Shown: in pieces, positions 43,105 through 59,275 of the stretch | How positions within the stretch are numbered: the stretch's first letter is position 1 | Layout of the letters: every line of letters starts with the position of its first letter | Assembly (NCBI RefSeq): GCF_011300215.1 | Contig: NZ_CP049866.1 | Span: forward strand, 1-64,000 | Source: Nocardioides piscis | GTDB lineage: Bacteria > Actinomycetota > Actinomycetes > Propionibacteriales > Nocardioidaceae | Direction: 5' to 3' | DNA: 64,000 bases | Position numbers and translations under genes: made by a program | The notes under the pieces: model-generated | Database searches by the model: none | Told to the model about the DNA's origin: nothing | What the model saw: the letters and a program-made list of their open reading frames with translations, nothing else

Positions 43105-43936
43105 CAGCGCCCGCCGTTGAGGAGCGCGTGCAGGTCGATGCCGACGCGTTCGAAGCGCTCGAGCCGCGACGGCACTCCGGCACCGCGACGCAGCTCGCCG
43201 CCGCCGCGCTCGAAGATGGGCTCCACCTCGATGATGTCGTTCTCGACACGTCCCGGCACCGAGACGATCTCGTTGACTCGGCGAACGCCCTGGGCGTCGA
43301 TGCCCAGGTGCACCACCAGGTCGACCGAGCTGGCCACCGTCGGCACCACGAACCTCGCCGAGATGTTCTCCCCCGCGAGCAGCGGAAGCGTGCACATCTT
43401 CACCAGCGCCTCGCGCGCACTGTTGGCGTGCAAGGTGCACATCCCGGGCAGTCCGGCATTCAGGGCCAGCAGCAGGTCGAGACACTCCTCGGCTCGCACC
43501 TCGCCGACGATGATCCGGCTGGGCCGCATACGAAGGGCCTCCTTGACCAGCTCTCGCAGCTGCACAGAGCCGGTTCCCTCGAGCCCTGCTTGTCGGGTCT
43601 GCATCGGCACCCAGTCCGGGTGGTTGAACTGGAGCTCGAAGACCTCTTCTGCCGAGATGACCCGGTCCCCACCTGGGATCGAGGACGCCAGGCAGTTGAG
43701 GAACGTGGTCTTGCCTGCCTGCGTCCCGCCAGCCACCAGCACGTTGAGTCCGGCCCGGATCGAGGCGTCGAGGAAGTCGGCCGCCGCTGGGGTGAGGCTG
43801 CCGAGCTCGACCAGGTCGTGCAGGCGTCGAGCCCTCACCACGAACTTGCGGATGTTGACGGCCGAGAACCCGCGACTGATCCCCTCCAGGACGACGTGGA
43901 GGCGGTGCCCTTGAGGAAGCATCGCGTCGACGAACG
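43104..43936 (-). pseudogene. cpaF: CpaF/TadA pilus ATPase, C-terminal part, split by the island
   Basis: This is the catalytic part of the Tad pilus secretion ATPase, severed from its N-terminus at 59268-59696. Coding sense runs FVDAMLPQGHRLHVVLEG through Walker A GGTQAGKTTFLNC, GGDRVISAEEVFEL, GEVRAEECLDLLLALN and MCTLHANSAREAL to RFERVGIDLHALLNGGR. The first seven codons upstream of the junction are island sequence. Joining it with the N-terminal part across GACGAACG gives QPFVDAMLPQG in frame and a full 417-residue ATPase, so the gene is intact apart from the insertion. While integrated, no complete CpaF can be made from this operon. Confidence 0.93.
43929..43936. other. attL core GACGAACG
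   Basis: This eight-base sequence recurs at the right junction (59268-59275) in the same orientation and in the same codon phase of cpaF, so it contains the crossover. Serine integrases exchange at a central dinucleotide, which probably lies inside these eight bases. Confidence 0.85.
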
Positions 43937-43956
43937 TAGGCGATACGTTAAGCGTT

Positions 43957-45342
43957 ATGAGCACCGCCATCCTTTACTTACGCCAGTCCAAGGCGAAGGA
44001 CGATTCGATCTCTATCGACCTGCAACGCGCTGCCTGCCTCGCCCACTGCCAGCGTCAGGGTTATGAGGTCATCGAGGAAGTGGTCGAAGAGGGTGTCTCA
44101 GGATTCCGCGACTGGCGCAAGCGACCGGAGTTCCACCGCGTCGTCGAGTCCAGGGCTGACGTCGTAGTTGTCTATCGGTGGTCGCGCCTGTCACGTAAGC
44201 GGCTGGACCAGGCGCAGCTGATCGACATGCTCGGGACGGTCGAGTCGGCGACCGAGCCGATAGACCCGACCACGGCGGGTGGCCGGTTCGCTCGCGAGCA
44301 GTTCCTCTCGTTCGCTGCGTTCGAGTCGGACCTCAAGAGCGAGCAGTGGAAGGAGGCGCTCAACCATCGAGCCGAGCGCGGCCTACCCAAGAACGGACAG
44401 CCGAGGTACGGATACGCCAAGCGCGAGGACGGCCACTACTCCCCCGACCCCATCACCGGACCGATCTTGCACGAGATGTACATCCGCTACATCGGAGGCG
44501 CGGGGTTACAGGTCCTGTGCGGCTGGCTCAACGATGCGGGGCACACGACGCAGCGCGGGAACGCGTGGACCGTGCAGACGTTGCGCCGTCTGTTGGAGTC
44601 GGGTTTCGGCGCCGGCCTGCTCGTTCAGGACACGAGAACAACGGGACGCGAGACGTCGTGGATCGAAGGCGCCCACGACGGAGTGATCAGTAGGGACGAG
44701 TGGCAGGCGTACCTCGACGTGAGGGGCAAGCGGAAGACCGTCGCGCCTAAGCGTCGAATCGCGCGGTGGCACTTGGCGGGGCTCGCGATCTGCGGCCTGT
44801 GTGGCAACCGCATGATCGTCACGACGCTGAAGGAGGGGAAGTCGCAGGCGCTCTGCTCCGGCTACCACAACTCACGGTCCTGCACGGGCGTGTGGATCAA
44901 GCGTCAGGTGCTGGAACACCGGGTCGCGCTATGGCTCGGCGCGCACATCGAGGACTTCCCTGAGAGGGACGTGACAGGCGGGGACGAGGCGAACGTCGTT
45001 AGTGATTTAGAGGAACGTCTAGCCGGGGTCCAGGCGCGTCTAGTGCGGCTCGCGGAGGGATACGCGGACGGCACTCTGGACACGGAGGGTTACCGGGGAG
45101 CACAGGCGAACGCCCTGGACGAGCGGACGAAGATCGAGACCGCGCTGCGTGACGCACGCGAGGAGGTCAGGCTCAGCGCGCCCATCAACATTGATGAGTT
45201 CTCGCGCCTGGAGGTCGGCGACGTCTCACCCGGCGAGTGGAACACCCTGCTCGGGCGGGTCCTCCGGCGCGTCGAGGTTTTCGGTGATCGTCTCGTGCTG
45301 GTGCCCGTCGTTGGCGACCAGGTGGAGATTCCCCGCTCGTGA
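43957..45342 (+). CDS. int: Serine-type site-specific integrase
   Basis: A 461-residue large serine recombinase. The catalytic Ser is in YLRQSKAKD (Ser11), the resolvase fold continues with VVVVYRWSRLSRKRLDQAQL, and the recombinase and zinc-ribbon domains follow (YGYAKREDGHYSPDP; CGLCGNRM and SGYHNSRSC with four Cys). The C-terminus is a coiled coil (DLEERLAGVQARLVRLAEG), then a structured tail. Its ATG is only 21 bases from the attL core, so the att site lies where its promoter would be. It catalyses integration into cpaF, and excision needs a directionality factor. Confidence 0.96.
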   Translation: MSTAILYLRQSKAKDDSISIDLQRAACLAHCQRQGYEVIEEVVEEGVSGFRDWRKRPEFHRVVESRADVVVVYRWSRLSRKRLDQAQLIDMLGTVESATEPIDPTTAGGRFAREQFLSFAAFESDLKSEQWKEALNHRAERGLPKNGQPRYGYAKREDGHYSPDPITGPILHEMYIRYIGGAGLQVLCGWLNDAGHTTQRGNAWTVQTLRRLLESGFGAGLLVQDTRTTGRETSWIEGAHDGVISRDEWQAYLDVRGKRKTVAPKRRIARWHLAGLAICGLCGNRMIVTTLKEGKSQALCSGYHNSRSCTGVWIKRQVLEHRVALWLGAHIEDFPERDVTGGDEANVVSDLEERLAGVQARLVRLAEGYADGTLDTEGYRGAQANALDERTKIETALRDAREEVRLSAPINIDEFSRLEVGDVSPGEWNTLLGRVLRRVEVFGDRLVLVPVVGDQVEIPRS

Positions 45343-45465
45343 GTCGTGAAACGTCCTGACGCGTATGTAGACGTCGCCCCATGCGGGAACGCACCGCGAC
45401 AGGACCCACAGGATCAGGGCGACGCCGAGCATCACCGGTGGTGCTCCGCCCAAAGCCTCGATCAT
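45226..45465 (-). CDS. Possible small membrane protein overlapping int 3' end
   Basis: A 79-residue reading frame on the opposite strand beginning MIEALGGAPPVMLGVALILW, one TM helix, then a polar domain (SRAGNLHLVANDGHQHETI). An SD-like GAGCAGG stands about eight bases upstream of the ATG. It overlaps the int gene by 117 bases, which weakens the case. Membrane small proteins are common cargo of phage elements, but this could be chance. No homologue is recognised. Confidence 0.3.
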   Translation of the reverse strand: MIEALGGAPPVMLGVALILWVLSRCVPAWGDVYIRVRTFHDSRAGNLHLVANDGHQHETITENLDAPEDPPEQGVPLAG

Positions 45466-45754
45466 GGTGGCCTGCTCTCGTGATGGCGACAGGTTCCTTA
45501 CCTGTCAAGACCATCGTCCCCGACTTCGCCGACAAGACACTGCACTTGTCCCCTGAGTTATCCCCAGCGACTGTGGACAACTGGCAGGCCACAGGCCTCT
45601 GACCTGCGGAAACACTGACCATCGGACTTGGCGCGGGCATCCTCGAAGTAGAACCGGATGCGTGCGTTCATTCGCGTCCGCAAGACGAAAAACCTGCTCT
45701 GACCTGCGACAACGTCAGGCGCAGCAGGCGCTTGAACCGCTCGGTCGGGTCTCG

Positions 45755-45958
45755 TTACGGATGTAGGTGATGATCCTCCCGGATCTTGCCCTGGTCGTAG
45801 AAGAGGACATCGCCCTCGGCGTGGCACTCAACTTCGAGGGATGGTGCGTGCCGACCGTGCGTGGCCCGTCGTGCGGCCTGTCGTGCGGCCAACGGTGCAA
45901 GCGTGACGACACCGCCGAGCTGCTCCCTACGTATGAGCTGGACCAGGTCCACGCCCAC
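45755..45958 (-). CDS. Possible small island protein of unknown function
   Basis: A 67-residue frame starting at a GTG: GVDLVQLIRREQLGGVV, then a basic stretch rich in His/Arg (AARQAARRATHGRHAP), and an acidic C-terminus (EVECHAEGDVLFYDQ, KIREDHHL). It shows moderate codon bias and no family. It points away from an AT-rich control region, as an early regulatory gene of the island would. An in-frame stop lies 36 bases upstream of the start. Function unknown; the frame may be fortuitous. Confidence 0.35.
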   Translation of the reverse strand: MGVDLVQLIRREQLGGVVTLAPLAARQAARRATHGRHAPSLEVECHAEGDVLFYDQGKIREDHHLHP

Positions 45959-46463: not shown

Positions 46464-46601
46464 ATGACCACACACGCCACGACCGAGCAAGACCTCATCG
46501 TCAGCCTCATCTCCGACCTCGCTTTGATCAAGGGCGAGCTGGAGTCCATGGGCATCAGCGTCGGCATCGAGGTCGGCGCTCGTTGGCCGGAAGAACAGTA
46601 G
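46464..46601 (+). CDS. Small island protein, 45 residues
   Basis: The reading frame begins MTTHATTEQDLIVSLISDLA and ends EVGARWPEEQ. An exact SD-like GAGAAGG lies seven bases before the ATG. The acidic helical middle (LIKGELESMGI) suggests a short helix-turn or oligomerising protein. It may be the first gene of the replication operon or a transcription modulator. No homologue is recognised. Confidence 0.5.
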   Translation: MTTHATTEQDLIVSLISDLALIKGELESMGISVGIEVGARWPEEQ

Positions 46602-46807: not shown

Positions 46808-46978
46808 TTGATTACCCCAATTGTAATGAACGTACCCGAGGCGGCGGAGTACCTGCGTCTCAGTCCCAGCACGATCCGCAAGATGATAGCCGCGGATGAA
46901 CTTAAGTCAACGATGCTTCGCGGACAGATCCGCATCCTCAAGGAAGACCTGGATGCGCTGTTCGAGGCGCATGACTAA
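46808..46978 (+). CDS. AlpA/Xis-like helix-turn-helix protein, probable recombination directionality factor
   Basis: A 56-residue MerR/excisionase-type HTH protein: NVPEAAEYLRLSPSTIRKMI is the helix-turn-helix of the AlpA family and GQIRILKEDLDAL the following wing. The start is TTG 46808 with GGAG six bases upstream; the ATG at 46826 is an alternative. In satellites such genes control int and the replication genes and direct excision. It lies next to the primase as in PICI-type elements. It is too short for most gene finders, so it is easily missed. Confidence 0.8.
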   Translation: MITPIVMNVPEAAEYLRLSPSTIRKMIAADELKSTMLRGQIRILKEDLDALFEAHD

Positions 46979-47053: not shown

Positions 47054-48601
47054 ATGCAAGACAATAATATCGCAGCATTTGATAGCCACCCTCAGTCCGA
47101 GGGCACACCAACGATCCTCGCGGCCGTCAAACCCCACCGACCCCAGGACATGATCAACCTGATGCGGGCCCGACACGAAGCCACTACTGATGCCGTAGCG
47201 GCGCAGATCATCGCCGAAGACGCGCTGCGCGACCGGTACTGCTGGACCAGCGGAGTCGGCTGGTTGAGATACGAGCACGGCGTCTGGACCGAGACATCGG
47301 AGGCGACCGTCATCGAACGAATTCGCCGCGCCGTGATCGATTGGCGCTACATCGAATCCAGCACTGGTGCCGATGCGGAGCGCCAGATGCGCTTGAAAGC
47401 TCTACTCGGACGCAATCGCATCGCAGCAATCGCGTCGCTCTCGCGCGGGATCGTCCAGGAAGAGACATCGGCGTTCGACGCCCATCCCGACCTGTTAAAC
47501 GTCCGGAATGGGGTGGTTGACCTCCGCACGGGACAGCTACAGCCGCACGACCCGTCTCTCTTGTTAACGAAGATTGCGTCGTGTGACTACATCTCTGGCG
47601 AGTCGCATTGCGACTGGACGACTGCGTTGGGGAGCATGCCGACCGGGGTGGCCGAGTGGATGCAGATCCGGATTGGTCAAGCGTCTACCGGCTACATGAC
47701 CTCCGATGACATCCTGCCGGTGCTACAGGGCGGCGGCGAGAACGGCAAGACCACCGTCATATCGGCCATCGAGCGCGTGCTTGGCACGCATGCTCGCAAG
47801 GTGCCTGACCGAGTGCTTTTGGGAAACCACAACGACCACCCGACCGAGATGATGACCTTGCGCGGGGTGCGGTTCGCCCTGATCGAGGAGACGCCGGAAG
47901 CTCGCCACCTCAACGTCAAACGCTTGAAGGACCTGTTGGGCACGCCCACGATCACGGCGAGGGCGATCGCCCGGGACAACGTGACCTGGGACGCCACGCA
48001 CTCGCTCTTCCTGACGACGAACTACGCGCCCCGGATCGACGAGGTTGACCATGGGACGTGGCGTCGGCTCGCGATGGTCAGGTTCCCGTACACCTACGTC
48101 ACGACGCCCCAGAAGGACGAGGAACGGAGGGGTGACCCGCACCTCCGCGACCGTCTCCGCGACGGCCTACAAGGCCAGCACGAGGCCGTCCTCGCCTGGA
48201 TCGTCGAGGGCGCGGTGAGGTGGTACTCCGCAGACCGGCGCATCCCGACACCACCGGTACAGGTGTTCACAGACACCAGGAAGTGGCGAGGCGAAGCCGA
48301 CATGGTCTTCGCCTTCGTCGAGGAGTGCATCGAGTTCGACTCCGACGCGATGGTCACGACCACAGACCTCTTGGCGCAGTTCAACGACTGGCTGCTGCAG
48401 CGCGGAGCACACAGCTGGTCTGACCAGACCTTCTCGGCCAGGTTCGCCACGCATCCGACCGTCGCCGAGCACTCAGTCTCGAAGGCGCGCACGACGAAGC
48501 TCGACGCCATCACGCGCAGGTCCGGACCACTGGCCTTCAACAAGGAGCCGTTGACGGGTCGCCAGAGTGTCTGGGTTGGTGTCCGGTTCGAGCGGTCGTG
48601 A
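47054..48601 (+). CDS. D5/P4-type phage primase-helicase
   Basis: A 515-residue replication protein. The N-terminal 170 residues correspond to the D5_N region (RYCWTSGVGWLRYEHGVW, LLNVRNGVVDLRTGQLQPHD), and the SF3 helicase follows with Walker A QGGGENGKTTV (Lys232), Walker B FALIEETPEA and motif C LFLTTNYAPRIDE. The C-terminal VFAFVEECIEF and RGAHSWSDQTF look like a DNA-binding winged helix. It starts and unwinds island replication. No separate polymerase-type primase is present; priming may rely on its N-terminus or host DnaG. Repeats just downstream may be its origin. Confidence 0.93.
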   Translation: MQDNNIAAFDSHPQSEGTPTILAAVKPHRPQDMINLMRARHEATTDAVAAQIIAEDALRDRYCWTSGVGWLRYEHGVWTETSEATVIERIRRAVIDWRYIESSTGADAERQMRLKALLGRNRIAAIASLSRGIVQEETSAFDAHPDLLNVRNGVVDLRTGQLQPHDPSLLLTKIASCDYISGESHCDWTTALGSMPTGVAEWMQIRIGQASTGYMTSDDILPVLQGGGENGKTTVISAIERVLGTHARKVPDRVLLGNHNDHPTEMMTLRGVRFALIEETPEARHLNVKRLKDLLGTPTITARAIARDNVTWDATHSLFLTTNYAPRIDEVDHGTWRRLAMVRFPYTYVTTPQKDEERRGDPHLRDRLRDGLQGQHEAVLAWIVEGAVRWYSADRRIPTPPVQVFTDTRKWRGEADMVFAFVEECIEFDSDAMVTTTDLLAQFNDWLLQRGAHSWSDQTFSARFATHPTVAEHSVSKARTTKLDAITRRSGPLAFNKEPLTGRQSVWVGVRFERS

Positions 48602-48682: not shown

Positions 48683-48740
48683 TCCGCCTAAGAGGTGTAC
48701 GCGACAGTCATGCAGGTGTACTTAAAGGGGGTGCTTGGTC

Positions 48741-49037
48741 GTGATGGTCTGCGACATCGTGAACTGGGACGACTTCGCCATGGCACGACCGGATCTGCGG
48801 GCGCTGGAGCGCCTCGTGGTGGGGCGCGCTCGGACCGAGGCACTGCGCGATGGGCCTTGGTGCGTGGACGTCTTCTGGACGATGGAGGTTGCGCCGCTGC
48901 TGGGTGTACTGATTCCTGCCGGCGAGTGGCGCGAGCTGGCTGATGGCTATCTCCGACGCACGGTCGAGACATACGCCGGGTGCCGGAGCTGCGGCTTCCA
49001 GCACTCGACCGCGTGGGCCGAGGAGGCGCCAGGATGA
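48741..49037 (+). CDS. Conserved island hypothetical protein with CxxC
   Basis: A 98-residue protein read from GTG 48741, with GGGGG eight bases upstream; ATG 48744 and TTG 48735 are alternatives. The frame has DIVNWDDFAMARPDLRALER, then WTMEVAPLLGVLIPAGEWREL and the terminal CRSCGFQHSTAWAEE, in which CRSC may bind metal. No family is identified. It overlaps the next small gene by four bases (ATGA). Its position between replication and packaging genes suggests it modulates one of these. Confidence 0.55.
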   Translation: MMVCDIVNWDDFAMARPDLRALERLVVGRARTEALRDGPWCVDVFWTMEVAPLLGVLIPAGEWRELADGYLRRTVETYAGCRSCGFQHSTAWAEEAPG

Positions 49038-49132
49038 TCGTCGCGATGGTAATGGCCGGGCTGGGGGTCGGCGCGTGGGCTGCGAGCCACGACCTGGTCA
49101 TCTTCATCGGCGAGCGGCTGCGACGTGAGTAG
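49034..49132 (+). CDS. Tiny single-TM membrane protein
   Basis: A 32-residue frame begins MIVAMVMAGLGVGAWAASHD with ATGA overlap to the previous gene, and ends ERLRRE* overlapping the HNH start. One hydrophobic helix is evident. It could be a holin-like or membrane-anchoring peptide; it is too small to be assigned by family. The tight overlaps on both sides favour it being real. Confidence 0.5.
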   Translation: MIVAMVMAGLGVGAWAASHDLVIFIGERLRRE

Positions 49133-49394
49133 CGCCTGGCAGGGTGGCTCGACCAGCGCGTGGCGAAAGGTCCGCGCCATGGTCCTCACTCGCGACGATC
49201 ACAAGTGCCGGTTGAGGACCAGCAGCAAATGCACCAATGTGGCAGATACCGTCCACCACACGCAATCGCGCAGCGTTGTGGGCGACGATCCCAGGCATCT
49301 CATCGCCGCATGTGGCGCGTGCAACTTTTCGTTCGGTGACCCGGCCCAAGAGAAGTACGGCGACCCGGCCGTTACGCCGCGCACGCGCTGGTAA
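49125..49394 (+). CDS. HNH endonuclease of the packaging module
   Basis: An 89-residue HNH nuclease beginning at GTG 49125: RDDHKCRLRTSSKC and then VHHTQSRSVVGDDPRHL, with the catalytic His pair, and CGACNFSFGDP closing the zinc site. HK97-like cos phages keep such a gene next to terminase because it is required for cos cleavage. Its location directly before terS is that pattern. It suggests cos-type packaging, with a defined end. Confidence 0.9.
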   Translation: MSSAWQGGSTSAWRKVRAMVLTRDDHKCRLRTSSKCTNVADTVHHTQSRSVVGDDPRHLIAACGACNFSFGDPAQEKYGDPAVTPRTRW

Positions 49395-49527: not shown

Positions 49528-49803
49528 ATGGCAACTCCACCCGATCCCACATCGCTGGCCGAAGCTGTCCGCGAAACCCTCGACGCGATTCCGCGTGACC
49601 CTCGTGATGCTGCGCTTCGTGGCCTTCTCGTGCGATATGCCGACGAGGTCGACGCAGGTGGATTTCTCGACAAGTACGGCAGCCGGATCCTGTCCGCCTT
49701 ACACGCCCTCGAGGCCACGCCTCGGGCACGCCGGGACCGGCCGGCACCGGATTCCGCCTGGGACGAACTCGGAGCGTTCTTTGACCGCGCTGCTGGGCAG
49801 TGA
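49528..49803 (+). CDS. terS: Small terminase subunit
   Basis: A 91-residue protein whose sequence MATPPDPTSLAEAVRETLDA, RDAALRGLLVRYADEVDAG and ILSALHALEATPRARRDR fits the small, helical actinophage terminase small subunits. It binds the packaging site and forms a ring with the large subunit. Its gene overlaps terL by 23 bases. The coupling and place directly before a convincing large terminase make the assignment firm although the sequence family is weak. Confidence 0.8.
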   Translation: MATPPDPTSLAEAVRETLDAIPRDPRDAALRGLLVRYADEVDAGGFLDKYGSRILSALHALEATPRARRDRPAPDSAWDELGAFFDRAAGQ

Positions 49804-51208
49804 GACACCTCGGCTAGCAACGCCGCCGCTGCACCACCTGACACCCGACACGAGCTTGGGCTTCGAGGTCATCGCCTTCTCCGAGAGGTTCTGCCGAGTC
49901 GAGCTCATGCCCTGGCAGCGGTGGTGGCTGATCCACGCCCTCGAACTCCGCCCGGACGGACGCCTCCGCTTCCGCCGCATCCTCACGCTCGTCTCGCGAC
50001 AGAACGGAAAGACCCACCTGTTGAAGCTGGTCGCCTTGTGGGCGATGGTCTCCGGCCGAGCACAGCTCGTCCTTGGTGTCGCACAAGACCTCGTGACCGC
50101 CCGAGAGTCGTGGCAGGGCACCATCGACCTCACCGAGCACCACCCGGCGCTCACGGCATTGAGGGGTAAGAATGCCGTCCGGCTCTCAACCGGCGATCTC
50201 GCGTTTACGTTGACCAACGGGGCGCGCTACAAGATCGCCCCGGCTAACGGTCGAGCCGGACGCGGCCTGTCGGTCGACCTCCTGATCCTTGACGAGCTCC
50301 GTGAGCACCGCGACGACGCCGCGTGGGCCGCCCTCTCAGCGACGACCACGGCCCGACCCGACGGACTCATCGTCGCTATCTCGAACGCCGGTGAGGAGCG
50401 ATCGATTGTCCTCAACGGTCTGCGGGACTCCGCACTCGCTGGAGCCGACGAGACGTTGGGGTTGTTCGAGTGGTCCGCGCCCGACAACTGCGAACTCGAC
50501 GACCCACGCGCATGGGCGCAAGCAAACCCGGGACTCGGGCACACCATCGAGGACCGCACTCTCGCCTCCGCACTCGCCACACTGACCCCCGGCAGGTTCA
50601 GGACCGAGCACCTGTGCCAGCGCGTCGAGTCCATCGAGACAGCGATTGACCTCAACGCCTGGCAGGCGTGCGCCGACTCACTCGGCACTATGGACGCCTT
50701 ACGCGATCGCATCACGCTCTGCCTCGACGTCTCCTCCGACCTCAAACACGTCTCGCTCGTCGCTGCCGGTCAACGCCAGGACGGGCGCGTGCGAGTCGAG
50801 CCGGTCGGCGCCTGGGACTCCCCCGACCAAGCACGGGCCGCACTGCCCGACCTCCTGACGCGCATCGACCCCCGAGTCCTCGGGTGGTTCCCGGGTGGAC
50901 CGGCTGCTGCCCTAGCTGCCGACTTGCGTGGCCTGAGCAAGACTGTCGAGCTGAAGGCCGGTGACGTCCCGTCGGTCTGCCAGGGATTCGCTGAGCAGGT
51001 GACGGCTCGGCGACTGGTGCACAGCAACGACCCACTCCTCAACGCCCATGTCAGCCAGACCACGAAACTCACTTCTGGGGACGGTTGGCGCTTCTCCCGG
51101 CGAGGTCTCGGGCATTGTGACGCCCTCTACGCGGCGGCAGGTTCGGTGCACTTGGCGAGGACATTGCCGGTGTCGGTGGGCAAACCGAGGATCATCGTCG
51201 CCGCGTAG
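49781..51208 (+). CDS. terL: Large terminase subunit
   Basis: A 475-residue packaging motor. The ATPase has VSRQNGKTH as Walker A (Lys77), LGVAQDLVTARES, and Walker B VDLLILDELREHR; the RNase H-like nuclease follows with CLDVSSDLKHVSLVA and C-terminal HCDALYAAAGSVHLA. The start is TTG 49781 with GGAG six bases upstream, within the terS 3' end. It belongs to the actinophage HK97-like terminase type. Together with the HNH gene, this gives the element an independent packaging machine. Confidence 0.93.
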   Translation: MTALLGSETPRLATPPLHHLTPDTSLGFEVIAFSERFCRVELMPWQRWWLIHALELRPDGRLRFRRILTLVSRQNGKTHLLKLVALWAMVSGRAQLVLGVAQDLVTARESWQGTIDLTEHHPALTALRGKNAVRLSTGDLAFTLTNGARYKIAPANGRAGRGLSVDLLILDELREHRDDAAWAALSATTTARPDGLIVAISNAGEERSIVLNGLRDSALAGADETLGLFEWSAPDNCELDDPRAWAQANPGLGHTIEDRTLASALATLTPGRFRTEHLCQRVESIETAIDLNAWQACADSLGTMDALRDRITLCLDVSSDLKHVSLVAAGQRQDGRVRVEPVGAWDSPDQARAALPDLLTRIDPRVLGWFPGGPAAALAADLRGLSKTVELKAGDVPSVCQGFAEQVTARRLVHSNDPLLNAHVSQTTKLTSGDGWRFSRRGLGHCDALYAAAGSVHLARTLPVSVGKPRIIVAA

Positions 51209-51239: not shown

Positions 51240-54041
51240 ATGGGCGCGGTATGGGATTGGGTCATTGGCCGCCCCAGCCCTGTGATCGAAGCGGCCATAA
51301 CCGGCCACGGACCGGCATTCGCCGTCGACCCCGCAGCGATCCCCGCGCAGATCTTCGGACTGGAAAGTTACGCGGACCCGATCGCGCCCGCACCGCGCAT
51401 CTCGCGCCGGGAAGCGATCCAGTGCCCAGCGGTCAAACGCGCTCGCGACCTGATCACGACGCTGGGAACTCTGCCTCTTTCGGCCTTCGACACCCAGCGC
51501 GTCGAGCACGTCAACGATTTGCTCGCCCAGCCTGAGCGAAACCGTCCGCGCTCCAAGACCATGATCGACACTCTCGATGACTTGCTGTTCGAAGGAGTCG
51601 CGTACTGGCTCGTCGTCGAGCGCGCCTTTGACGGCTACCCACGTTTCATCCAGCGCGTCCACCCCGACAACGTCGACGTCGACGCAGACGACGCAACCGT
51701 TCGCGTGAACGATCGACTGGTGCCCGCCACTGACGTCATCCAGTTCGAGTCTCCCAATGACGCTTTGCTCGTCGCTGGCGCCCGTGCGATCCGCACCTGT
51801 CTTCGCTTGGACGCCACCGCCTCGATGTACGCCGATGAACCCATGCCTACCGGCTACTTCTCTTCCACTGAGGGCGCTGACCCGGCTGATGACGACGACG
51901 TGGTTAACCTACTTAATGCCTGGAAGGCGGCACGTAAGGCACGCGCCACGGCATACGTGCCCGCGGCCTTGACCTACAACGTCACCCAGTTCACCCCCGA
52001 GCAACTGGAACTCGCGAACGCCCGCCAGCACGCCGTCCTCGAGATAGCCCGTGCAGCAGGGGTCGACCCCGAGGAACTCGGTGTCTCGACCACAAGCCGT
52101 ACCTACGCCAACCAGTTCGACCGTCGCAAGGCGTTCGTGGACTTCACCCTCGGCGCCTACCGCCAAGTCATCGAGGACCGTCTGAGCATGCGAGACGTCA
52201 CCAGGCGGGGGTACTTCGTTCGGTTCAACCTGGACTCGTTCCTTCGCTCCGACCCCAAGACCCGGATGGAGACGTACGTACTGGGTCTCCAAGTCGGCGC
52301 TTATGACCGAGCTGAGATCCGTGACCTCGAGGACAAGCCCGCACTCCCCGCGCCCCTCCACGAGGCGCCGGTCACGGCGAGCGCCGAAACGTTCAATGAG
52401 CCCGAGATCGCGGTTCGTATGGACGCCACTTCCAGCGCCCAGTTCTCCGTAGACGTCGAGGCTCGCACTATCCGCGGCCTCGCCGTCCCCTATGGAAGAT
52501 CAGCGACGTCTGGCGGACGCAAGTGGCAGTTCGCGAAGGGCGTCTTGCAGTTCGCGGACGTCTCGCGCGTGAAGCTGCTTGCCAACCACGACTGGAAGCA
52601 AGCCATCGGCAAGGCCATCGCCCTTGACGACACCGAAGAGGGCCTCGTTGCGACCTTCAAGGTCGCTCGTGGCGCTGCTGGCGATAACGCTCTGGCGCTT
52701 GCCGAAGACGGTGTGTGGGACGGGCTGTCCATCGGATTGGGCGATCCCTCTCTCATCCGGTTCACGGAGCGCAACGGCATCGCCGTCGCCACCTCCGCAC
52801 CACTCGCGGAAATCTCCCTCACCCCATGCCCTGCGTTCGCAGATGCCCGGGTCACCAGCGTCGCTGCGACCAGCGACTTCACGAAACAGGAACAAGAAAT
52901 GCCCGACTCTCACACATCAGGCACCGGGCCACAGCCGGTCGCACTGGCAGCCGTCACAGATGCCATCAAGTCAGGTTTTGCAGCGCTGGCCGAGGGGCCA
53001 ACTCTCGTCGCTCCTCAGGTGCTGCGCTCCCACGTCTACGAGGGCCCGATGTACCGCTTCGACGGCGCACCAGGAAAGCACGACTTCTCTACAGACGTCA
53101 TCGCCAGCCTGAAAGACGGCGACCGCGAAGCAGGCGCACGGGTCCAGTCCTTCATCGAGGAAGCGTTCGCTCCAAAGTTTGAAGTCGACACGGGAAACGT
53201 GACCAGTTTGAACCCCCAGCGCCAGAGACCAGACATGTACGTCGACAAACTCGACTACTCCACCCCGGTCTACGACGCGCTGCACAAAGGCACGCTCGCT
53301 GACATAACCCCATTCGTGTTCCCGAAATTCGGGTCATCCTCCGGCCTCGTCGGCCCCCACACCGAAGGTGTCGAGCCGACACCAGGCGCCTTCACCGCAA
53401 CGAGCCAGACCGTCAACCCCTCCGCCGTCTCCGGCAAGGTCGAAATTACTCGCGAAGTCTGGGACCAAGGCGGCAACCCACAAGTCTCCGGCCTCATTTG
53501 GCGTGAGATGGTCCGCGCCTACTACGAGTCGCTCGAGGCAAGCGCTGTCGCTCTCCTCGACGCCGCTTCACCTACGCAAGTCGCGCTTACAGCTGGTGCG
53601 CAAGATGACGCGCTTGTCAACGAGTTCGAGGCCGAGATTGCCGCCCTGCAGTTCATCCGAGGCGGCAACCGGTTCACCTTCATGCCTACCCACATCGACC
53701 TCTACACCGCACTGGCCGGTGCCGTCGACGCCGGGGGGCGCAAACTACTGCCCATCATTGGACCCCAGAACGCCAACGGCACATCGGCTCCGCACTTCGC
53801 CTCGTTGAACATCGCAGGGGTACGCGCTTCACCCTCGTGGGCACTTGGCGTCTCAGGTGTCGTCTCCGAGTCGTCTTACCTGGTCAACCCCGCTGACGTC
53901 CACGTCTGGAACACAGCACCGTCACGCTTGCAGTTCGAATACCGAGTCGCATACGTCGACCTAGCGATCTGGGGCTACGTCGCCTCCGCCATCAGCCGTC
54001 TCGACGGAGTCCGCGCGATCACGTACACCGCAGCAGCCTGA
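51240..54041 (+). CDS. Portal-prohead protease-major capsid polyprotein (triple fusion)
   Basis: One 933-residue frame carries three head functions. Residues 1-385 are an HK97 portal (AIQCPAVKRARDLITTLGTL, FEGVAYWLVVER, GVDPEELGVSTTSRTYANQF). Residues 394-550 are an S78 prohead protease: RTIRGLAVPYG, His450 in LLANHDW, Ser497 in DGLSIGLG and ISLTPCPAF. Residues 554-933 are the HK97-fold capsid (ITREVWDQGGNPQVSGLIWR, FMPTHIDLYTALAG, YVASAISRLDG). An SD-like AGGA seven bases before ATG 52899 (Met554) could also give free capsid protein. Self-cleavage by the protease would otherwise separate the parts. There is no separate scaffold gene. Confidence 0.9.
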   Translation: MGAVWDWVIGRPSPVIEAAITGHGPAFAVDPAAIPAQIFGLESYADPIAPAPRISRREAIQCPAVKRARDLITTLGTLPLSAFDTQRVEHVNDLLAQPERNRPRSKTMIDTLDDLLFEGVAYWLVVERAFDGYPRFIQRVHPDNVDVDADDATVRVNDRLVPATDVIQFESPNDALLVAGARAIRTCLRLDATASMYADEPMPTGYFSSTEGADPADDDDVVNLLNAWKAARKARATAYVPAALTYNVTQFTPEQLELANARQHAVLEIARAAGVDPEELGVSTTSRTYANQFDRRKAFVDFTLGAYRQVIEDRLSMRDVTRRGYFVRFNLDSFLRSDPKTRMETYVLGLQVGAYDRAEIRDLEDKPALPAPLHEAPVTASAETFNEPEIAVRMDATSSAQFSVDVEARTIRGLAVPYGRSATSGGRKWQFAKGVLQFADVSRVKLLANHDWKQAIGKAIALDDTEEGLVATFKVARGAAGDNALALAEDGVWDGLSIGLGDPSLIRFTERNGIAVATSAPLAEISLTPCPAFADARVTSVAATSDFTKQEQEMPDSHTSGTGPQPVALAAVTDAIKSGFAALAEGPTLVAPQVLRSHVYEGPMYRFDGAPGKHDFSTDVIASLKDGDREAGARVQSFIEEAFAPKFEVDTGNVTSLNPQRQRPDMYVDKLDYSTPVYDALHKGTLADITPFVFPKFGSSSGLVGPHTEGVEPTPGAFTATSQTVNPSAVSGKVEITREVWDQGGNPQVSGLIWREMVRAYYESLEASAVALLDAASPTQVALTAGAQDDALVNEFEAEIAALQFIRGGNRFTFMPTHIDLYTALAGAVDAGGRKLLPIIGPQNANGTSAPHFASLNIAGVRASPSWALGVSGVVSESSYLVNPADVHVWNTAPSRLQFEYRVAYVDLAIWGYVASAISRLDGVRAITYTAAA

Positions 54042-54042
54042 C

Positions 54043-54393
54043 GTGACCGAGCAAGTGACAGAGCCCTGGGGAATGCCCACGCTGTACGACATCAAGGAGT
54101 ACCTGGTCTTCAATCAATGTGGCACCACGACGTGGTCGGACTACCAGGTCGCGTCCACCCTCGAAGCCGAAGCCAACGCCCAAGCCGTTGTTTGCCGAGT
54201 GCCTTACCCCATGCCGCCAGACCTAGCAGAAGCCCTCCGGCGAAGGGTCGCGCACAACTTCTCCCTTCAAGTCCTGTCGAGCGATAACTCGTTAACGATG
54301 GTCGCGTCAGCTGTTGCTACAGCCCAAACAGGGGGACTCGACCCGATGGTTCGGCGCCTCGAAGCCCCGTATCGCCGCGTGCCCGTTGGCTAA
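54043..54393 (+). CDS. Head-tail connector protein
   Basis: A 116-residue protein starting at GTG one base after the capsid stop. MPTLYDIKEYLVFN then ALRRRVAHNFSLQVLSSDNS resembles the helical gp6/gp15-type head-tail connectors, which finish the head and accept a tail. A family match is not certain; order after capsid supports it. No further morphogenesis gene follows: the next genes are restriction-modification. It implies that the element builds heads ready for tails made elsewhere. Confidence 0.7.
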   Translation: MTEQVTEPWGMPTLYDIKEYLVFNQCGTTTWSDYQVASTLEAEANAQAVVCRVPYPMPPDLAEALRRRVAHNFSLQVLSSDNSLTMVASAVATAQTGGLDPMVRRLEAPYRRVPVG

Positions 54394-55172: not shown

Positions 55173-55232
55173 CGGTCGCCACTCGGCGAGCCGTATCGGA
55201 GAGTGTCGGTGCGTCGTGACACCATCCGTGGC

Positions 55233-56297
55233 ATGTCAGACGTGTCGTACCCGCCGTTCAACTTCATTGACCTCTTCGCCGGCATCGGCGGCATCCGGAC
55301 GGCGTTCGACGGCATCGGTGGCACATGCGTCATGACGTCTGAGTGGGACTCGTATGCAAAGACCACGTACACCACCAACTTCCCGAGCGATGAGGGCGCA
55401 GACCACATCTTCAACGGCGACATCACGGCGATCCACGAGACCCGGGTGCCAGACCACGACCTGCTGCTTGGGGGCTTCCCGTGCCAGCCGTTCAGTATCG
55501 CGGGCGTCTCGAAGAAGAACGCGCTTGGCCGAGCCCACGGCTTCCAAGACCCGACGCAGGGCACGCTCTTCTTTGACATCAAGAGAATCATCGACGAGAA
55601 GCGGCCCGCGGCCTTTCTGCTGGAGAACGTCAAGAACCTCAAGTCTCACGACCGCGGGCGAACGTTCCAAGTGATCAAGGACTCGCTCGAGAAGGATCTG
55701 GGCTACCACGTGCAGACGAGGGTGGTGAACGGCATCCACTGGACGCCACAGAACCGCGAGCGGATCCTGATCGTGGGCTTCCGGGAGCCGACGGCGTTTG
55801 ACTTCGAGGCGATGAAGGTACCGGCGCAGGGACCGAAGGTCGAGTCGATCTTGCACCGGAAGGGTGAGGCCGAGTTGCCCCACGACGAGGGCCGGTTCTT
55901 CAATCCACGCACCGGCGCGGTCAACCCGAAGTACACCCTCACAGACCGTCTCTGGGCCTACCTCCAGACGTATGCGCAGAAGCACAAGGCCGCAGGAAAC
56001 GGTTTCGGTTTCGGGCTGGTGCGTCCCGGCATGACCACACGGACTCTTTCGGCCCGGTACTACAAGGACGGGTCGGAGATCTTGGTCGAACAGCGGGGCA
56101 AGAACCCTCGCCGACTCACTCCCCGCGAGTGCGCTCGCCTCATGGGGTTCGACGACTCTTTCGTGATTCCCGTCAGCGACACGAGGGCATACAAGCAGTT
56201 CGGGAACAGTGTGGTCGTCCCGGCAATGTCGGCTGTTGCCGAGCACATGGCGCCGCACATCGGGGCGGCGCTCGCTAGCGACGAGCCCGCCGCTTAG
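55233..56297 (+). CDS. DNA (cytosine-5-)-methyltransferase
   Basis: A 354-residue C5 methyltransferase: motif I NFIDLFAGIGGIRTAF, motif IV GGFPCQPFSIAG (catalytic Cys84), motif VI ENVKNLKS (Glu131), QNRERILIVGF and the C-terminal motif X KQFGNSVVVPAMSAVAEHMA. It protects DNA against the convergent restriction gene, with which it overlaps by four bases. I chose ATG 55233; a GTG ten codons upstream is less well placed. The target sequence is probably CCNGG-like by analogy with the MvaI/BcnI nuclease partner; this is inference. Confidence 0.94.
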   Translation: MSDVSYPPFNFIDLFAGIGGIRTAFDGIGGTCVMTSEWDSYAKTTYTTNFPSDEGADHIFNGDITAIHETRVPDHDLLLGGFPCQPFSIAGVSKKNALGRAHGFQDPTQGTLFFDIKRIIDEKRPAAFLLENVKNLKSHDRGRTFQVIKDSLEKDLGYHVQTRVVNGIHWTPQNRERILIVGFREPTAFDFEAMKVPAQGPKVESILHRKGEAELPHDEGRFFNPRTGAVNPKYTLTDRLWAYLQTYAQKHKAAGNGFGFGLVRPGMTTRTLSARYYKDGSEILVEQRGKNPRRLTPRECARLMGFDDSFVIPVSDTRAYKQFGNSVVVPAMSAVAEHMAPHIGAALASDEPAA

Positions 56298-57712
56298 GCC
56301 ACCCAGGCCGGGAGCTCGATCCCGGCATTCTGCAGGGACAACTCCGCCAGACGGCGACTTGGCGTCACGGTCCGGACATCGTTCTCGGTGAAGTCTTCGT
56401 ACAGAGTCTTGAGCCTGTTTCGGTTCACGCGAATCTGATATCGCCACTTGCCGCCTTCGGCGCTCGACCAGTGCAATGCGGGGTCAAAGTAGATGAGTCC
56501 AAGGTCCACAGCGTCGAGGAAGCGCGCAAACGACGTACCAACCCCAAGACCTACCCGGGGGCCGTATGTGAAGCCATCTTGCGCGGTACCTGACCTGATC
56601 ACATAAGCCGCCAAAGCGTGCTTCGCGGTCCACTTGGTGAGGAGCTTGGCTTTCGACCAAGTCATCCCGACCTCACCGGTTACGTTGTGCACCAGATGGA
56701 TCGCCAACTGATCGACCATGAGGTGCGTCGTCGCGCGGCCCCCCGGGCGACGTACGGCCGTATGAGCACCGGTGTAGTCGTAGCGGTCTTTCGCGGGAGA
56801 GAAGTAGCCGAAGTTTCCCTTGAGCATGAAGTCTTCAATGCCACGGTCAATGAGGTACCCGCCTGTCGGGCCGGGAGTCATTAGTGTGATTTTGGAGCTC
56901 GTGTGCGACTTGAGTTCCCATCCTTGAAAATCGGGTTCGGACAACGCGTTGGGCTTCACCCCAAACACGGTTTCAAGCGTCGTGCCGCCAGAGTTCTGGT
57001 CGGCCCGTGGAACGACCACACCGTTGCGGATGCTGCAACCCCTGATCGGGCTCATGCGATGGACGCCGTGGAGTTCAGCGAGCATGGACTTACTGGAAAT
57101 TGTGATCGCTTGTGGAGCGATTGACCAGCGAGCGAAGGGGTGGGGGGCAAGTCCTGCAGTCAGCTCCTGTGCAGCCGGCGAGCTGGGCGGTAGAACGAGT
57201 CCGTAGACCTTCGTCCCTGCCACTCCCAAAAGCATCAGTCGGTCGGGCGAGAACACCTTGCCGGGCCGATGCGACAGCAACGATCGTGGAGCATCTTGTG
57301 CTCCCTGCAGGAATCCCGATAGTCGCGTCTCCGGGTACTGCGGGTAATGGATCAAGTTGGTCCTAGGGGCTGGCGAGGCGCCCCCGGGTGTGAGCCATGC
57401 GAGATCGATTGGCGCCCGGTAGATGACCTCTTCTTCACCGGTTCGCTCGGACGTGGAGATCCAGCTCGTGAACTCGCCCATTGGCAGTTCGACGTCGTTG
57501 ATGTCGTCTTGGAGGTAGATCTGGTTCTTCGAGTTGTTGTTGGGTGCCAGCTTCTTAACCATGACGTGCTCGACGCCGAGCTCCCAAAAACGCTTCTGTA
57601 TCTCTATGCGGCCGAGACCCCTAAGCCAGTCGTCGTACGCCACGTCCCGATCCGCTCGCTTCACGCCCGTCAGGGTTCCAGAAGTTGAGCAACGATTGGG
57701 CAGAACAGCCAA
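56294..57712 (-). CDS. MvaI/BcnI-type restriction endonuclease
   Basis: A 472-residue type II restriction endonuclease of the MvaI/BcnI family (PF15515 type). The family core is SGGTTLETVFGVKPNALSEP, DFQGWELKSHTSSKITLM and TPGPTGGYLIDRG, whose SEPDF...WELK contains the PD-(D/E)XK catalytic residues (Asp261, Glu266, Lys268). MvaI and BcnI cut CCWGG and CCSGG respectively, so a related site is likely. The 240-residue N-terminal part (TSWISTSERTGEEEVIYRAP) is larger than the classical enzymes and may help recognition. The convergent methyltransferase supplies protection. Confidence 0.9.
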   Translation of the reverse strand: MAVLPNRCSTSGTLTGVKRADRDVAYDDWLRGLGRIEIQKRFWELGVEHVMVKKLAPNNNSKNQIYLQDDINDVELPMGEFTSWISTSERTGEEEVIYRAPIDLAWLTPGGASPAPRTNLIHYPQYPETRLSGFLQGAQDAPRSLLSHRPGKVFSPDRLMLLGVAGTKVYGLVLPPSSPAAQELTAGLAPHPFARWSIAPQAITISSKSMLAELHGVHRMSPIRGCSIRNGVVVPRADQNSGGTTLETVFGVKPNALSEPDFQGWELKSHTSSKITLMTPGPTGGYLIDRGIEDFMLKGNFGYFSPAKDRYDYTGAHTAVRRPGGRATTHLMVDQLAIHLVHNVTGEVGMTWSKAKLLTKWTAKHALAAYVIRSGTAQDGFTYGPRVGLGVGTSFARFLDAVDLGLIYFDPALHWSSAEGGKWRYQIRVNRNRLKTLYEDFTENDVRTVTPSRRLAELSLQNAGIELPAWVA

Positions 57713-57783
57713 GTCGGGTGCCTGTTGATGAACTCGACGAACTTTTACGGCCCCTGTCGAGCCGATCCGGCACGCGATGCGGG

Positions 57784-58215
57784 CTAAGCAACGCGAGCGT
57801 TGCTCCGTTTTAGCACCTTCTTCTTCGGCAACGGCTTCTTGACCGGCTTGGCGAGCCGCCCCACCAAGTCGTCGACTAGGTCGAGGTCGTCTTGGTCGAG
57901 GGTGCCAAGCACGGCCGCGATCTTCTGAGCCTGTGCCGACGCCTGCGCCTCAGACTGGACCCCGTACCAGTCAGCGGCGATCATTCGGGCAACCTGATCC
58001 TCTGTCGTGCTGAACAGTGCCGCGATGCCCGGGATGGCCTCGGGCGTGGGCGGGCCGACGCGCGAGCCTGCGGGCTCCCAAGCGCCATGGCGAACGAGGT
58101 TCCGCCACCACGCGTGCGAACGCGCACCCTCGCAGTCGACCTGCATGCGCACGTAGTCGTCACCTGTGCGCCGCGCAACGTCCCGCGCTGCGTCCTGGAA
58201 GGGTGTTGTGCTCAT
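57784..58215 (-). CDS. Probable immunity repressor (helix-turn-helix)
   Basis: A 143-residue protein with an actinophage-style DNA-binding part: YVRMQVDCEGARSHAWWRNL, then PPTPEAIPGIAALFSTTEDQ followed by VARMIAADWYGV, which resembles the 'PETIRGIARALGVTE' segment of actinophage repressors. The C-terminus is basic (KPVKKPLPKKKVLKRSN). It is expressed from an apparently leaderless promoter, a habit of phage repressors. It would keep the island silent and give immunity. The family match is weak, so the role is inferred. Confidence 0.6.
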   Translation of the reverse strand: MSTTPFQDAARDVARRTGDDYVRMQVDCEGARSHAWWRNLVRHGAWEPAGSRVGPPTPEAIPGIAALFSTTEDQVARMIAADWYGVQSEAQASAQAQKIAAVLGTLDQDDLDLVDDLVGRLAKPVKKPLPKKKVLKRSNARVA

Positions 58216-58221
58216 AATCTG

Positions 58222-58250: not shown

Positions 58251-58481
58251 GATACTTTGCTGGAAACACTCCGTCGGGCCACTCAGGTGTCTTTTGGTGA
58301 ACTAGACCAACTGGTCAGGGAACCAAGCGCGCCACAGCGGGATCATCGCGTCTGGGTTCCACGGGACGCCTCGGATCGTCGTGCGGCAGGTAGTTCGCTA
58401 CATATCCGTCCCTTCAGAGCACCGTCCCTCCGGCAAGGGGTGTACACGGAACGCCTTGCTGCGTACGTTCGCGCTCAATAG
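58239..58481 (+). CDS. Doubtful small ORF beside the repressor promoter
   Basis: The 80-residue frame begins at a GTG (MSAQDTLLETLRRATQVSFG) inside the repressor promoter and lacks an SD sequence. Codon use is mixed, and no family is seen. It may be an antirepressor-like gene or non-coding operator DNA. A TTGGT...ACCAA inverted repeat at 58294-58310 is inside it, better explained as a regulatory site. I give it low weight. Confidence 0.28.
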   Translation: MSAQDTLLETLRRATQVSFGELDQLVREPSAPQRDHRVWVPRDASDRRAAGSSLHIRPFRAPSLRQGVYTERLAAYVRAQ

Positions 58482-58511
58482 TTGTTTCTACAACGAAATG
58501 AGGCGAATGTA

Positions 58512-58748
58512 ATGAAGGTCATCGACACCAAGATCGCTCGCAGCACCGGCTCACCCGTGACCGTGCTGGACGCTGAGGGATGGCAGGAACTGCCCGAGCC
58601 GGGATTCCGCTGGGTTGTCAGGTGTGACGAACACCTGTTTGAGGCGTGGTTGGAGAACAGGCGCGAGGCACACGCCATCGCTGCAGAGCCTGAAGACTGG
58701 TGCACCGGCTGCGCGAACGACCAGTGGGAGTACGTCGAGGACGAATAG
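58512..58748 (+). CDS. Conserved small hypothetical protein
   Basis: A 78-residue protein starting MKVIDTKIARSTGSPVTVLD with SD GAGG about ten bases upstream. The end is acidic (EPEDWCTGCANDQWEYVEDE) with a CTGC motif that might bind metal. WVVRCDEHLFEAWLENRREA is conserved in small actinobacterial proteins of unknown role. It is followed by a strong terminator and is probably accessory cargo. Confidence 0.7.
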   Translation: MKVIDTKIARSTGSPVTVLDAEGWQELPEPGFRWVVRCDEHLFEAWLENRREAHAIAAEPEDWCTGCANDQWEYVEDE

Positions 58749-58802
58749 TTCGGAGTGCCTATGGTCGGCCGCATGCGACGGTGCGTATCGTGGCGAACGC
58801 GA

Positions 58803-58852
58803 AGGCCCGCGACCTTCAGGGTGTTGGTAGCACTCTGAATCGTCGCGGGCCT
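58803..58852 (+). terminator. Strong rho-independent terminator
   Basis: AGGCCCGCGAC (58803-58813) pairs with GTCGCGGGCCT (58842-58852); an inner TTCAGGGTG/CACTCTGAA stem extends it. A GCTTGTTTT tail follows. It ends the plus-strand gene at 58512. Confidence 0.85.
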
Positions 58853-58875
58853 CGCTGCTTGTTTTCAGGGCCTCA

Positions 58876-59046
58876 TCAGGTGAGGTCGTCAATCACCGCC
58901 CCTGCAGCTTGCTCCTTGAGAAGGTTGGCGCAGTGCAGCGCTGACGCCTTCGACTGGTAGTTCTCAGTGTGCCCCAGGGTCTCGCCGTTGCGGGCGACGA
59001 ACGAGACGTAGAACTCGGTCCCACTGCGGCGGATCTTGAATTTCAT
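58876..59046 (-). CDS. DUF1508 (YegP-like) small protein
   Basis: A 56-residue protein beginning MKFKIRRSGTEFYVSFVARN and continuing GETLGHTENYQSKASALHCA, one complete YegP/DUF1508 repeat. SD GAGGAG is eight bases before the ATG. YegP-like proteins are small beta-alpha units of unknown function, often single or double copies in phages. It is on the minus strand, opposite to the head genes, near attR. It was missed by length cut-offs but the domain is clear. Confidence 0.8.
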   Translation of the reverse strand: MKFKIRRSGTEFYVSFVARNGETLGHTENYQSKASALHCANLLKEQAAGAVIDDLT

Positions 59047-59267
59047 CCTTGTTACTCCTCTAGATCAGGCGCGGCTCTCGGACGAGAACCCTCAACGCCT
59101 ACCTAAGAGTCTGAGCAGTGCAGGGCCAGAATCAGATGCGACACGCCCGAACACGGTCACGTTCGTCGCGCTGCGTGTGGGGGATGATGGTCGGTTTGCG
59201 CCACTCCCTTCCCATGCGTCTCAATAGCCCCAACGTCCGTGGCTGCAGGTGACCTTAGGTGTACACA

Positions 59268-59275
59268 GACGAACG
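59268..59275. other. attR core GACGAACG
   Basis: Second copy of the eight-base core. Between 59047 and 59267 no gene is seen; this 220-base arm would face the integrase start in the circular form and may hold the int promoter. Confidence 0.85.

What the first reader, a model, noticed from the sequence alone, without database searches (positions are those of the whole stretch)
43929..59275. Tail-less, capsid-encoding phage satellite with a full R-M-V cargo in an actinobacterium
Int, AlpA-like HTH, SF3 primase-helicase, HNH, TerS, TerL, portal-protease-capsid and a connector are all intact, yet no tail, tape-measure, holin or endolysin gene exists in 15.3 kb. Established knowledge: cf-PICI satellites make their own heads and borrow helper tails. 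An actinobacterial version with serine integrase and restriction cargo appears little described. Inference: it needs a helper and is a mobile defence island.
Basis: partly seen in the sequence, partly recalled or inferred. Interest (0 to 1): 0.95.

Follow-up and report, generated by a model that had tools for sequence, protein, structure and literature searches.

The report
Tail-less virus-head element carrying restriction system
A 15-kb element that splits a pilus gene of an actinobacterium carries genes for a virus head, for DNA packaging and for a restriction-modification system but no recognisable tail genes, whereas its nearest relatives with enough sequence to judge have them, so it would likely have to borrow a tail from another phage to spread.

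Summary
An intact-looking 15,339-bp element lies in cpaF, the tad-pilus ATPase gene of an inferred Nocardioides genome, between two copies of GACGAACG. It encodes a serine integrase, excisionase-type HTH, P4-family helicase, HNH, TerS-like protein, TerL, a single 933-aa portal-protease-capsid protein, an HK97 gp6-like connector and a Vsr/Dcm-like methylase/MvaI-BcnI endonuclease cassette. No tail or lysis gene was recognised. New here: its head genes belong to a large actinobacterial family of about 16-18 kb mini-siphophages. Of 90 distinct scorable loci in the main set, 89 carry tail genes downstream of the capsid gene; the 90th is this element. The capsid tree places it among tailed relatives, so the tail was probably lost, with the restriction cassette in its slot. 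I favour a cf-PICI-like satellite made by tail loss (0.5) over a defective prophage (0.4). No helper was found in the host, and the tail status of its closest sisters is unknown. Tail-less or capsid-encoding actinobacterial elements are in print (mycobacterial prophage-like elements, MulchRoom/MiniFlayer, predicted Actinomycetota PICIs), so this is a new variant of a known kind.

The parts
43929..43936 (.). attL core GACGAACG
   Evidence: Identical 8-mer at both ends; joined flanks restore cpaF
59268..59275 (.). attR core GACGAACG
   Evidence: As above
43104..43964 (-). cpaF (tad pilus ATPase), C-terminal part, host gene split by the element
   Evidence: PF00437 T2SSE; joined frame
59268..59732 (-). 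cpaF, N-terminal part (host)
   Evidence: Joined frame
43957..45342 (+). large serine integrase, 461 aa
   Evidence: PF00239, PF07508, PF13408; phrog_95 4e-83
46464..46601 (+). unknown, 45-aa ORF
   Evidence: ORF caller only; no match in held loci
46808..46978 (+). excisionase/AlpA-type HTH, 56 aa from TTG (50 aa from ATG at 46826)
   Evidence: TIGR01764 1.7e-12
47054..48601 (+). P4-family SF3 helicase, 515 aa; D5_N present, N-terminal primase part absent
   Evidence: PF08706; phrog_1156 positions 358-825; TIGR01613 over cutoff
48735..49037 (+). unknown, 100 aa
   Evidence: No hit in Pfam, PHROGs or PADLOC; no match in held loci
49125..49394 (+). HNH endonuclease
   Evidence: phrog_144 1.4e-10; 53-55% to HNH of L107 and L108
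49528..49803 (+). TerS-like, 91 aa, tentative
   Evidence: Position before TerL; one weak match, L034, 4e-5; no HMM hit
49781..51208 (+). large terminase TerL (TTG start chosen by eye)
   Evidence: phrog_9 3e-76 on the longer ORF 49595-51208
51240..54041 (+). portal + prohead protease + major capsid in one 933-aa ORF
   Evidence: PF04860, PF04586; phrog_12, phrog_2263; AlphaFold model matches HK97-family portals and HK97 capsids in one chain
54043..54393 (+). head-tail connector, HK97 gp6-like; last phage gene
54702..55082 (-). Vsr patch-repair endonuclease (ORF open to 55172)
   Evidence: PF03852; TIGR00632 over cutoff
55203..56297 (+). Dcm-like C5 cytosine methyltransferase
   Evidence: PF00145 1e-80; TIGR00675 over cutoff
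56294..57712 (-). MvaI/BcnI-family restriction endonuclease
   Evidence: PF15515 9e-25
57784..58215 (-). unknown, 143 aa; relatives sit among other genes in two Nocardioides genomes
   Evidence: 66% in G152, 45% in G071
58482..58748 (+). unknown, 88-aa ORF
   Evidence: No hit
58876..59046 (-). unknown, 56-aa ORF
   Evidence: No hit

Best explanation
This is an integrated element with open, full-length head, packaging and integration genes and no recognised tail or lysis genes, and it is predicted to act as a capsid-forming satellite that would borrow tails and lysis from a helper phage. Mechanism: the serine integrase, likely with the excisionase-type HTH, would excise it from cpaF, and the P4-type helicase would replicate the circle. 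The HNH, TerS-like protein and TerL would package its own DNA into procapsids built from the portal-protease-capsid polyprotein. The gp6-like adaptor would then sit on the portal so that a helper's stopper and tail can dock. The likeliest helper type is a 16-18 kb mini-siphophage of the kind that encodes the same head and connector. In the lysogen the R-M-V cassette would defend the host. Shown: gene content, exact boundaries, absence of tail markers, head kinship to tailed phages. Inferred: excision, replication, packaging, helper use, defence. The head half most likely came from a tailed mini-phage whose tail module was replaced by the R-M-V cassette.
For: Integrase, TerL and fusion have lengths near their family medians (461, 475 and 933 aa against 462, 491 and 962; for the medians), and the replacement falls at a gene boundary just after the connector. 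In the main set 89 of 90 distinct scorable loci carry tail genes downstream of the capsid gene; 19 more were too short to score. By function, 89 of those 89 have a major-tail hit, 82 a tape measure, 74 tail completion, 69 all three. The element lies inside the tailed clade: 56-row set with 33 tailed rows, support 99. Folds match HK97 portal, capsid and gp6. Close connector homologues P0121 (79%) and P0122 (85%) share an insertion absent from the tailed relatives aligned, so the clade exists elsewhere. The length, 15.3 kb, is near that of cpaF-integrated tailed relatives (about 16.4 and 17.9 kb) and circular ones (16.7-18.1 kb). Potential helpers exist: tailed mini-siphophage prophages in 13 of 214 other Nocardioides genomes.
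Against: No second tail-less relative was proven. The context of the four closest homologues (P0002, P0003, P0121, P0122) is not available here, and none of the 120 listed Vsr hits has their contig lengths. The host has no second portal hit and no tape-measure hit, so no helper of this kind is seen. No stopper (gp7-like) gene, repressor or known helper-interference gene was recognised. The helicase lacks the N-terminal part of longer relatives. The connector is somewhat more diverged than the fusion predicts (mean residual -1 sd, second lowest of 35). The conserved-column test (0 of 54 violated) is uninformative, since the median of the others is also 0. Open frames alone do not prove function, because ORFs are chosen to lack stops.
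Confidence: 0.5

Rival explanations
1. Defective prophage: a complete mini-siphophage lost its tail and lysis genes in one recombination that brought in an R-M-V cassette; it no longer moves and persists because the cassette pays its way.
For: Every other scorable locus of the main set is tailed and the element nests among them; no helper seen in the host; no near copy found in 215 Nocardioides genomes; no stopper, repressor or interference gene recognised.
Against: Integrase, TerL and fusion are full length, the att cores are intact and the module boundary is clean; close connector homologues with a shared insertion lie on other public contigs. None of this excludes a recent deletion.
Confidence: 0.4
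2. Head capture: a satellite-type backbone (serine integrase, excisionase, P4-type helicase) acquired packaging and head genes from mini-siphophages, so it never had a tail.
For: The closest helicases (50-52%) lie in 20-kb Nocardioides stretches in which this head module was not found. HNH is closest to L107/L108 and TerL to L108, L077 and L073, whereas the fusion is closest to others, so the element is a mosaic.
Against: A tailed mini-phage contig, L059, has the same left-arm order (serine integrase, P4-type helicase, HNH, TerL, fusion), so this kind of left half also exists with a tail. One of the helicase stretches (L200) holds a 1222-aa ORF weakly similar to tape measures.
Confidence: 0.07
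3. Complete phage with an unrecognised short tail.
For: Five small ORFs without annotation.
Against: They total only 432 aa, none matched a family in the libraries tried, and the slot used for tails in relatives holds the restriction cassette.
Confidence: 0.03

Closest known systems
Capsid-forming PICIs (cf-PICIs; as described in PMC10690885 and PMC10803314, passages read)
   Same: HNH, TerS, TerL, own major capsid, protease, portal and head-tail connectors, dependence on helper tails only; average size 14 kb. Integrase, AlpA-type regulator and P4-type replication protein as in PICIs generally (recalled)
   Different: Serine integrase, fused head polyprotein, only one connector recognised, no repressor recognised. 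[quoted passage not shown] PMC10690885 calls them widely distributed across Bacteria. Helper use untested here
16-18 kb actinobacterial mini-siphophages/prophages (IMG/VR and genome loci here; Arthrobacter cluster AN at 15.5 kb, PMC5513430, passages read)
   Same: Same portal-protease-capsid fusion (a separate portal and a protease-capsid fusion in cluster AN), TerL, connector, compact size, sometimes the same gene cpaF
   Different: They encode major tail, tail completion and tape-measure proteins; none was recognised in this element
Mycobacterial prophage-like elements (PMC3986857, passages read; gene lists seen for phiMCAN_1, phiBN44_1, phiMmcs_2, phiMycsm_1; for phiRv1 size and integrase type only)
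   Same: 9-12 kb where a size was read; integrase (serine in phiRv1, phiMmcs_2, phiMycsm_1) with primase, HNH, terminase, portal and capsid genes in varying subsets; no tail gene named in those lists
   Different: No R-M-V cargo named in those lists; described there as prophage-like; sequence kinship not tested here
Streptomyces satellites MulchRoom and MiniFlayer (PMC10690885, abstract, passages and section 14 read)
   Same: Actinomycete satellites that encode their own capsid and terminase; the paper infers that MulchRoom's tail comes from the helper
   Different: No primase, about 1-kb DTRs, virulent helpers; [quoted passage not shown]

Membership tests
cf-PICI | Own HNH and TerL | tested here: met
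   HMM hits
cf-PICI | Own TerS | tested here: inconclusive
   A 91-aa ORF in the right place, no HMM hit, one weak match to L034
cf-PICI | Own portal, protease, capsid and head-tail connector(s) | tested here: met
   one connector found, no stopper recognised
cf-PICI | No tail or lysis genes | tested here: met
   No hit in the scans
cf-PICI | PICI regulation: repressor/AlpA pair (recalled) | tested here: inconclusive
   Excisionase/AlpA-type HTH present; no repressor recognised
cf-PICI | Capsid falls in one of the known cf-PICI capsid clades | not tested
   No cf-PICI sequences were compared; the capsid groups with actinobacterial tailed mini-phages
cf-PICI | Helper-dependent particles with own head and helper tail | not testable with these tools
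   Needs wet work
Actinobacterial mini-siphophage | Portal-protease-capsid kinship | tested here: met
Actinobacterial mini-siphophage | Tail module downstream of the capsid gene | tested here: not met
   Present in 89 of 90 distinct scorable loci of the main set; the 90th is this element
Decayed prophage | Broken or truncated phage genes | tested here: not met
   Integrase, TerL and fusion near family median length; the short helicase form also occurs in L099 (492 aa), a tailed locus
Type II R-M-V cassette (MvaI/BcnI + Dcm-like methylase + Vsr) | All three genes together | tested here: met
   the same trio is annotated on a Thauera plasmid

The most novel reading that the evidence does not exclude
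A phage satellite caught soon after its birth by reduction: a mini-siphophage lineage traded its whole tail and lysis module for a restriction-repair island of similar length, kept head, packaging, replication and integration intact, and now parasitises the tails of its own tailed sister phages.
Probability: 0.4. Interest if true: 0.8.

Novelty: new variant of a known kind. Interest (0 to 1): 0.55.

Why it matters
How phage satellites arise is open. [quoted passage not shown] Here a tail-less element has many tailed relatives around it in the capsid tree, with the missing module replaced cleanly. That gives a concrete pair, element and tailed mini-phage sharing connector type and host genus, in which the reductive route can be tested.

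Tried and rejected
Helper in the host: phrog_58, PF10145 and PF05065 gave no match, and PF04860 only the window itself. PF05065 does not even detect this element's own capsid, so that one is a weak control.

Hidden tail remnants: tblastn of the relatives' tail and neck families against 54394-59267 gave nothing better than E 0.07.

Other tail-less relatives: two further IMG/VR scans led by distant members (224 and 400 confirmed stretches, best 80 kept of each) gave 75 loci with at least 4 kb downstream, 20 of them already seen. 72 had at least one tail marker, 67 at least two. Of the three without, L348 and L372 show tape-measure-like and tail-tube-like ORFs by eye only; L360 ends 4.3 kb downstream and stays unresolved. 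In the 2-4 kb class 6 of 20 had no marker. Single-protein scans with the helicase, the 143-aa protein and the integrase found no relatives in IMG/VR.

Marker caveat: 'two or more markers' can be met by one ORF that hits both major-tail models, so recounts by function.

Linking the close connector homologues (contigs of 2242 and 953 bp) to Vsr through contig length: none of the 120 listed of 7965 Vsr hits has those lengths; inconclusive.

G060 was first noted as a second element inside cpaF. One search shows its two cpaF parts 5 bp apart, in different frames, with no element between them, so I dropped that.

Terminator and promoter scan from 54000 to 59300: nothing; the fold of 54394-54500 is unremarkable, z 0.75. 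No avoidance of CCWGG in the element (37 found, 36.7 expected). REase and connector have no sequence match in the PDB. Foldseek alone gave no significant match for the connector; VIA-align ranked HK97 gp6 first and other phage portal adaptors next. The conserved-column test did not discriminate.
Full report
Check of the observation. The element spans 43929-59275. Both ends carry GACGAACG and lie in one gene, cpaF of a tad pilus locus: the C-terminal part reads from 43964 downwards (PF00437) and the N-terminal part from 59732 downwards. Joining the flanks in a script restores a continuous CpaF frame, and matches of the joined site with up to 3 mismatches occur in 32 of 215 Nocardioides genomes, own not among them. 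The core-to-core length is 15,339 bp. GC is 59-67% per kilobase inside the element against 67-74% in the flanking kilobases, apart from the one that holds the right end. The genus is inferred: genomes given as same-genus have contigs of exactly the lengths of named Nocardioides records, for example 294442, 496574 and 492936 bp.

Relatives. The protein search for the fusion returned 768 proteins, the query among them; only the 7994 best word-sharing candidates were scored. IMG/VR gave 373 confirmed stretches, of which the best 80 were fetched. The species genome collection gave 32 loci, all actinobacterial by their titles. In 215 Nocardioides genomes 25 had a match, own included; 13 others were strong, E below 1e-60. 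I called ORFs, clustered them and built marker HMMs. PHROGs confirmed example members from L024 and L156 as major tail protein, tail completion and tape measure; my minor-tail markers and the second major-tail family were not confirmed that way.

Tail tally. Of 165 loci with a capsid match, 94 had at least 4 kb downstream; 93 of these had two or more tail markers, 92 a tape-measure hit, and only the window none, while it kept the connector (E 5e-24). After dropping rows that were near-identical or short, or that lacked a portal hit, 109 distinct loci of 152 rows remained: 89 tailed, 19 too short to score, and this one. Among the 89, all have a major-tail hit, 82 a tape measure, 74 tail completion and 69 all three. 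All 13 strong Nocardioides relatives carry major-tail and tape-measure markers. The HMMs were built from these same loci, so they find many of those tails by construction; the PHROGs hits are the independent check. Two further scans aimed at distant members gave 72 of 75 with at least one marker (20 of the 75 seen before), with three exceptions discussed under tried and rejected. 293 of the 373 stretches were not fetched by that call.

Polarity. In a FastTree of 128 rows the element groups with P0002 and P0003 (support 100), and the next starred set holds 56 rows: 33 tailed, 19 unknown, 3 too short, and this one. The neighbours of P0002 and P0003 are unknown because their contigs (3068 and 5147 bp) are not available here. 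Loss or replacement of the tail on this branch is the simplest reading. The element is a mosaic: its TerL is closest to L108, L077 and L073 (56-57%), its helicase to G060 and G161 (50-52%), its fusion, among loci with known context, to tailed L204 (59%) and L011 (58%). A tailed mini-phage contig, L059, has the same left-arm order with serine integrase, P4-type helicase, HNH, TerL and fusion, so the left half need not come from a satellite.

Function or decay. For function: integrase, TerL and fusion near family median length, a clean junction after the connector stop at 54393, intact att cores, a size near that of tailed relatives, and connector homologues at 79% and 85% identity (P0121, P0122) that share a 5-residue insertion lacking in the tailed relatives aligned. 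For decay: no stopper and no repressor recognised, no helper seen in the host, no proven tail-less sister, a helicase without its N-terminal part, and a connector more diverged than average. The conserved-column test (0 of 54 violated) does not separate the element from the others, whose median is also 0. I put 0.5 on a functional satellite and 0.4 on a defective prophage.

Integration site. Tailed relatives in N. psychrotolerans (L093, about 16.4 kb, tyrosine integrase in its copy L024) and N. soli (L119, about 17.9 kb) also split cpaF, about 25 codons from this site. A different, larger element starts in cpaF of G021. Excision would restore the pilus ATPase; whether this is regulated is unknown.

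Cargo. The trio MvaI/BcnI endonuclease, Vsr and Dcm-like methylase is also annotated together on a Thauera plasmid, so the cassette itself is ordinary mobile cargo. The methylase matches Dcm-type models; that these act on CCWGG is recalled, not tested. The endonuclease has no match at E 1e-5 in 50,697 phage records.

Known kinds. cf-PICIs are described as encoding capsid, protease, portal, connectors, TerS, TerL and HNH, and as depending only on helper tails (PMC10690885, passages read); the main cf-PICI host groups listed in PMC10803314 (passages read) are not actinobacterial. [quoted passage not shown] I did not compare this element with them, so they could prove closer than anything used here. 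Mycobacterial elements with integrase, primase, HNH, terminase, portal and capsid genes in varying subsets, some with serine integrases, were described in 2014 as prophage-like (PMC3986857, passages read). MulchRoom and MiniFlayer are capsid-encoding Streptomyces satellites without a primase (PMC10690885). PMC10023795 (passages read) suggests that a significant part of the smaller actinobacterial prophage elements could be satellites. Hence 'new variant of a known kind'. I did not see this lineage or this tail-for-R-M-V replacement in print in searches, which cover open-licence papers only; I opened six papers.

Noticed in passing
G000:C1:2414031-2422476 (L153:9032-17477): A second small element in the same genome: tyrosine integrase, HTH repressor-like gene, helicase fragment, TerL (phrog_2), but no portal or capsid recognised; looks PICI-like or a remnant.
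   Followed up: partly
L093, L119, L122, L242/L243 (G021): cpaF is a recurrent insertion gene: tailed mini-phages (L093, L119), possibly L122, and a larger element in G021 sit in or at it, at different codons.
   Followed up: partly
L199:6290-7500 (G060): cpaF of G060 is read in two parts 5 bp apart and in different frames near the residue where the window's element sits, with a serine-integrase element next to it.
   Followed up: no
L047, L066, L086: Three IMG/VR contigs of the tailed mini-phage family carry 127-bp terminal repeats, as expected of closed circles of 16.7-18.1 kb.
   Followed up: no
window 54043-54393; P0121, P0122: The connector and its two close homologues share a 5-residue insertion (FNxCG) not seen in the tailed relatives aligned.
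   Followed up: partly
L108:8419-9849: In the Jiangella relative the TerL gene lies on the strand opposite to the portal-capsid fusion.
   Followed up: no
window 57784-58215; G152:C8:761214, G071:C1:1129839: The 143-aa protein has 66% and 45% relatives in two Nocardioides genomes beside other genes, one of them resembling a DUF262-type protein (recalled motif), so it may belong to defence islands rather than to the phage part.
   Followed up: partly
NZ_OW011624.1 plasmid (L396): The same MvaI/BcnI-Vsr-Dcm trio is annotated on a Thauera plasmid close to a recombinase-family gene.
   Followed up: no
window 32015-32381: tmRNA gene with tag ADNNRNDFALAA; not used as an integration site here.
   Followed up: no
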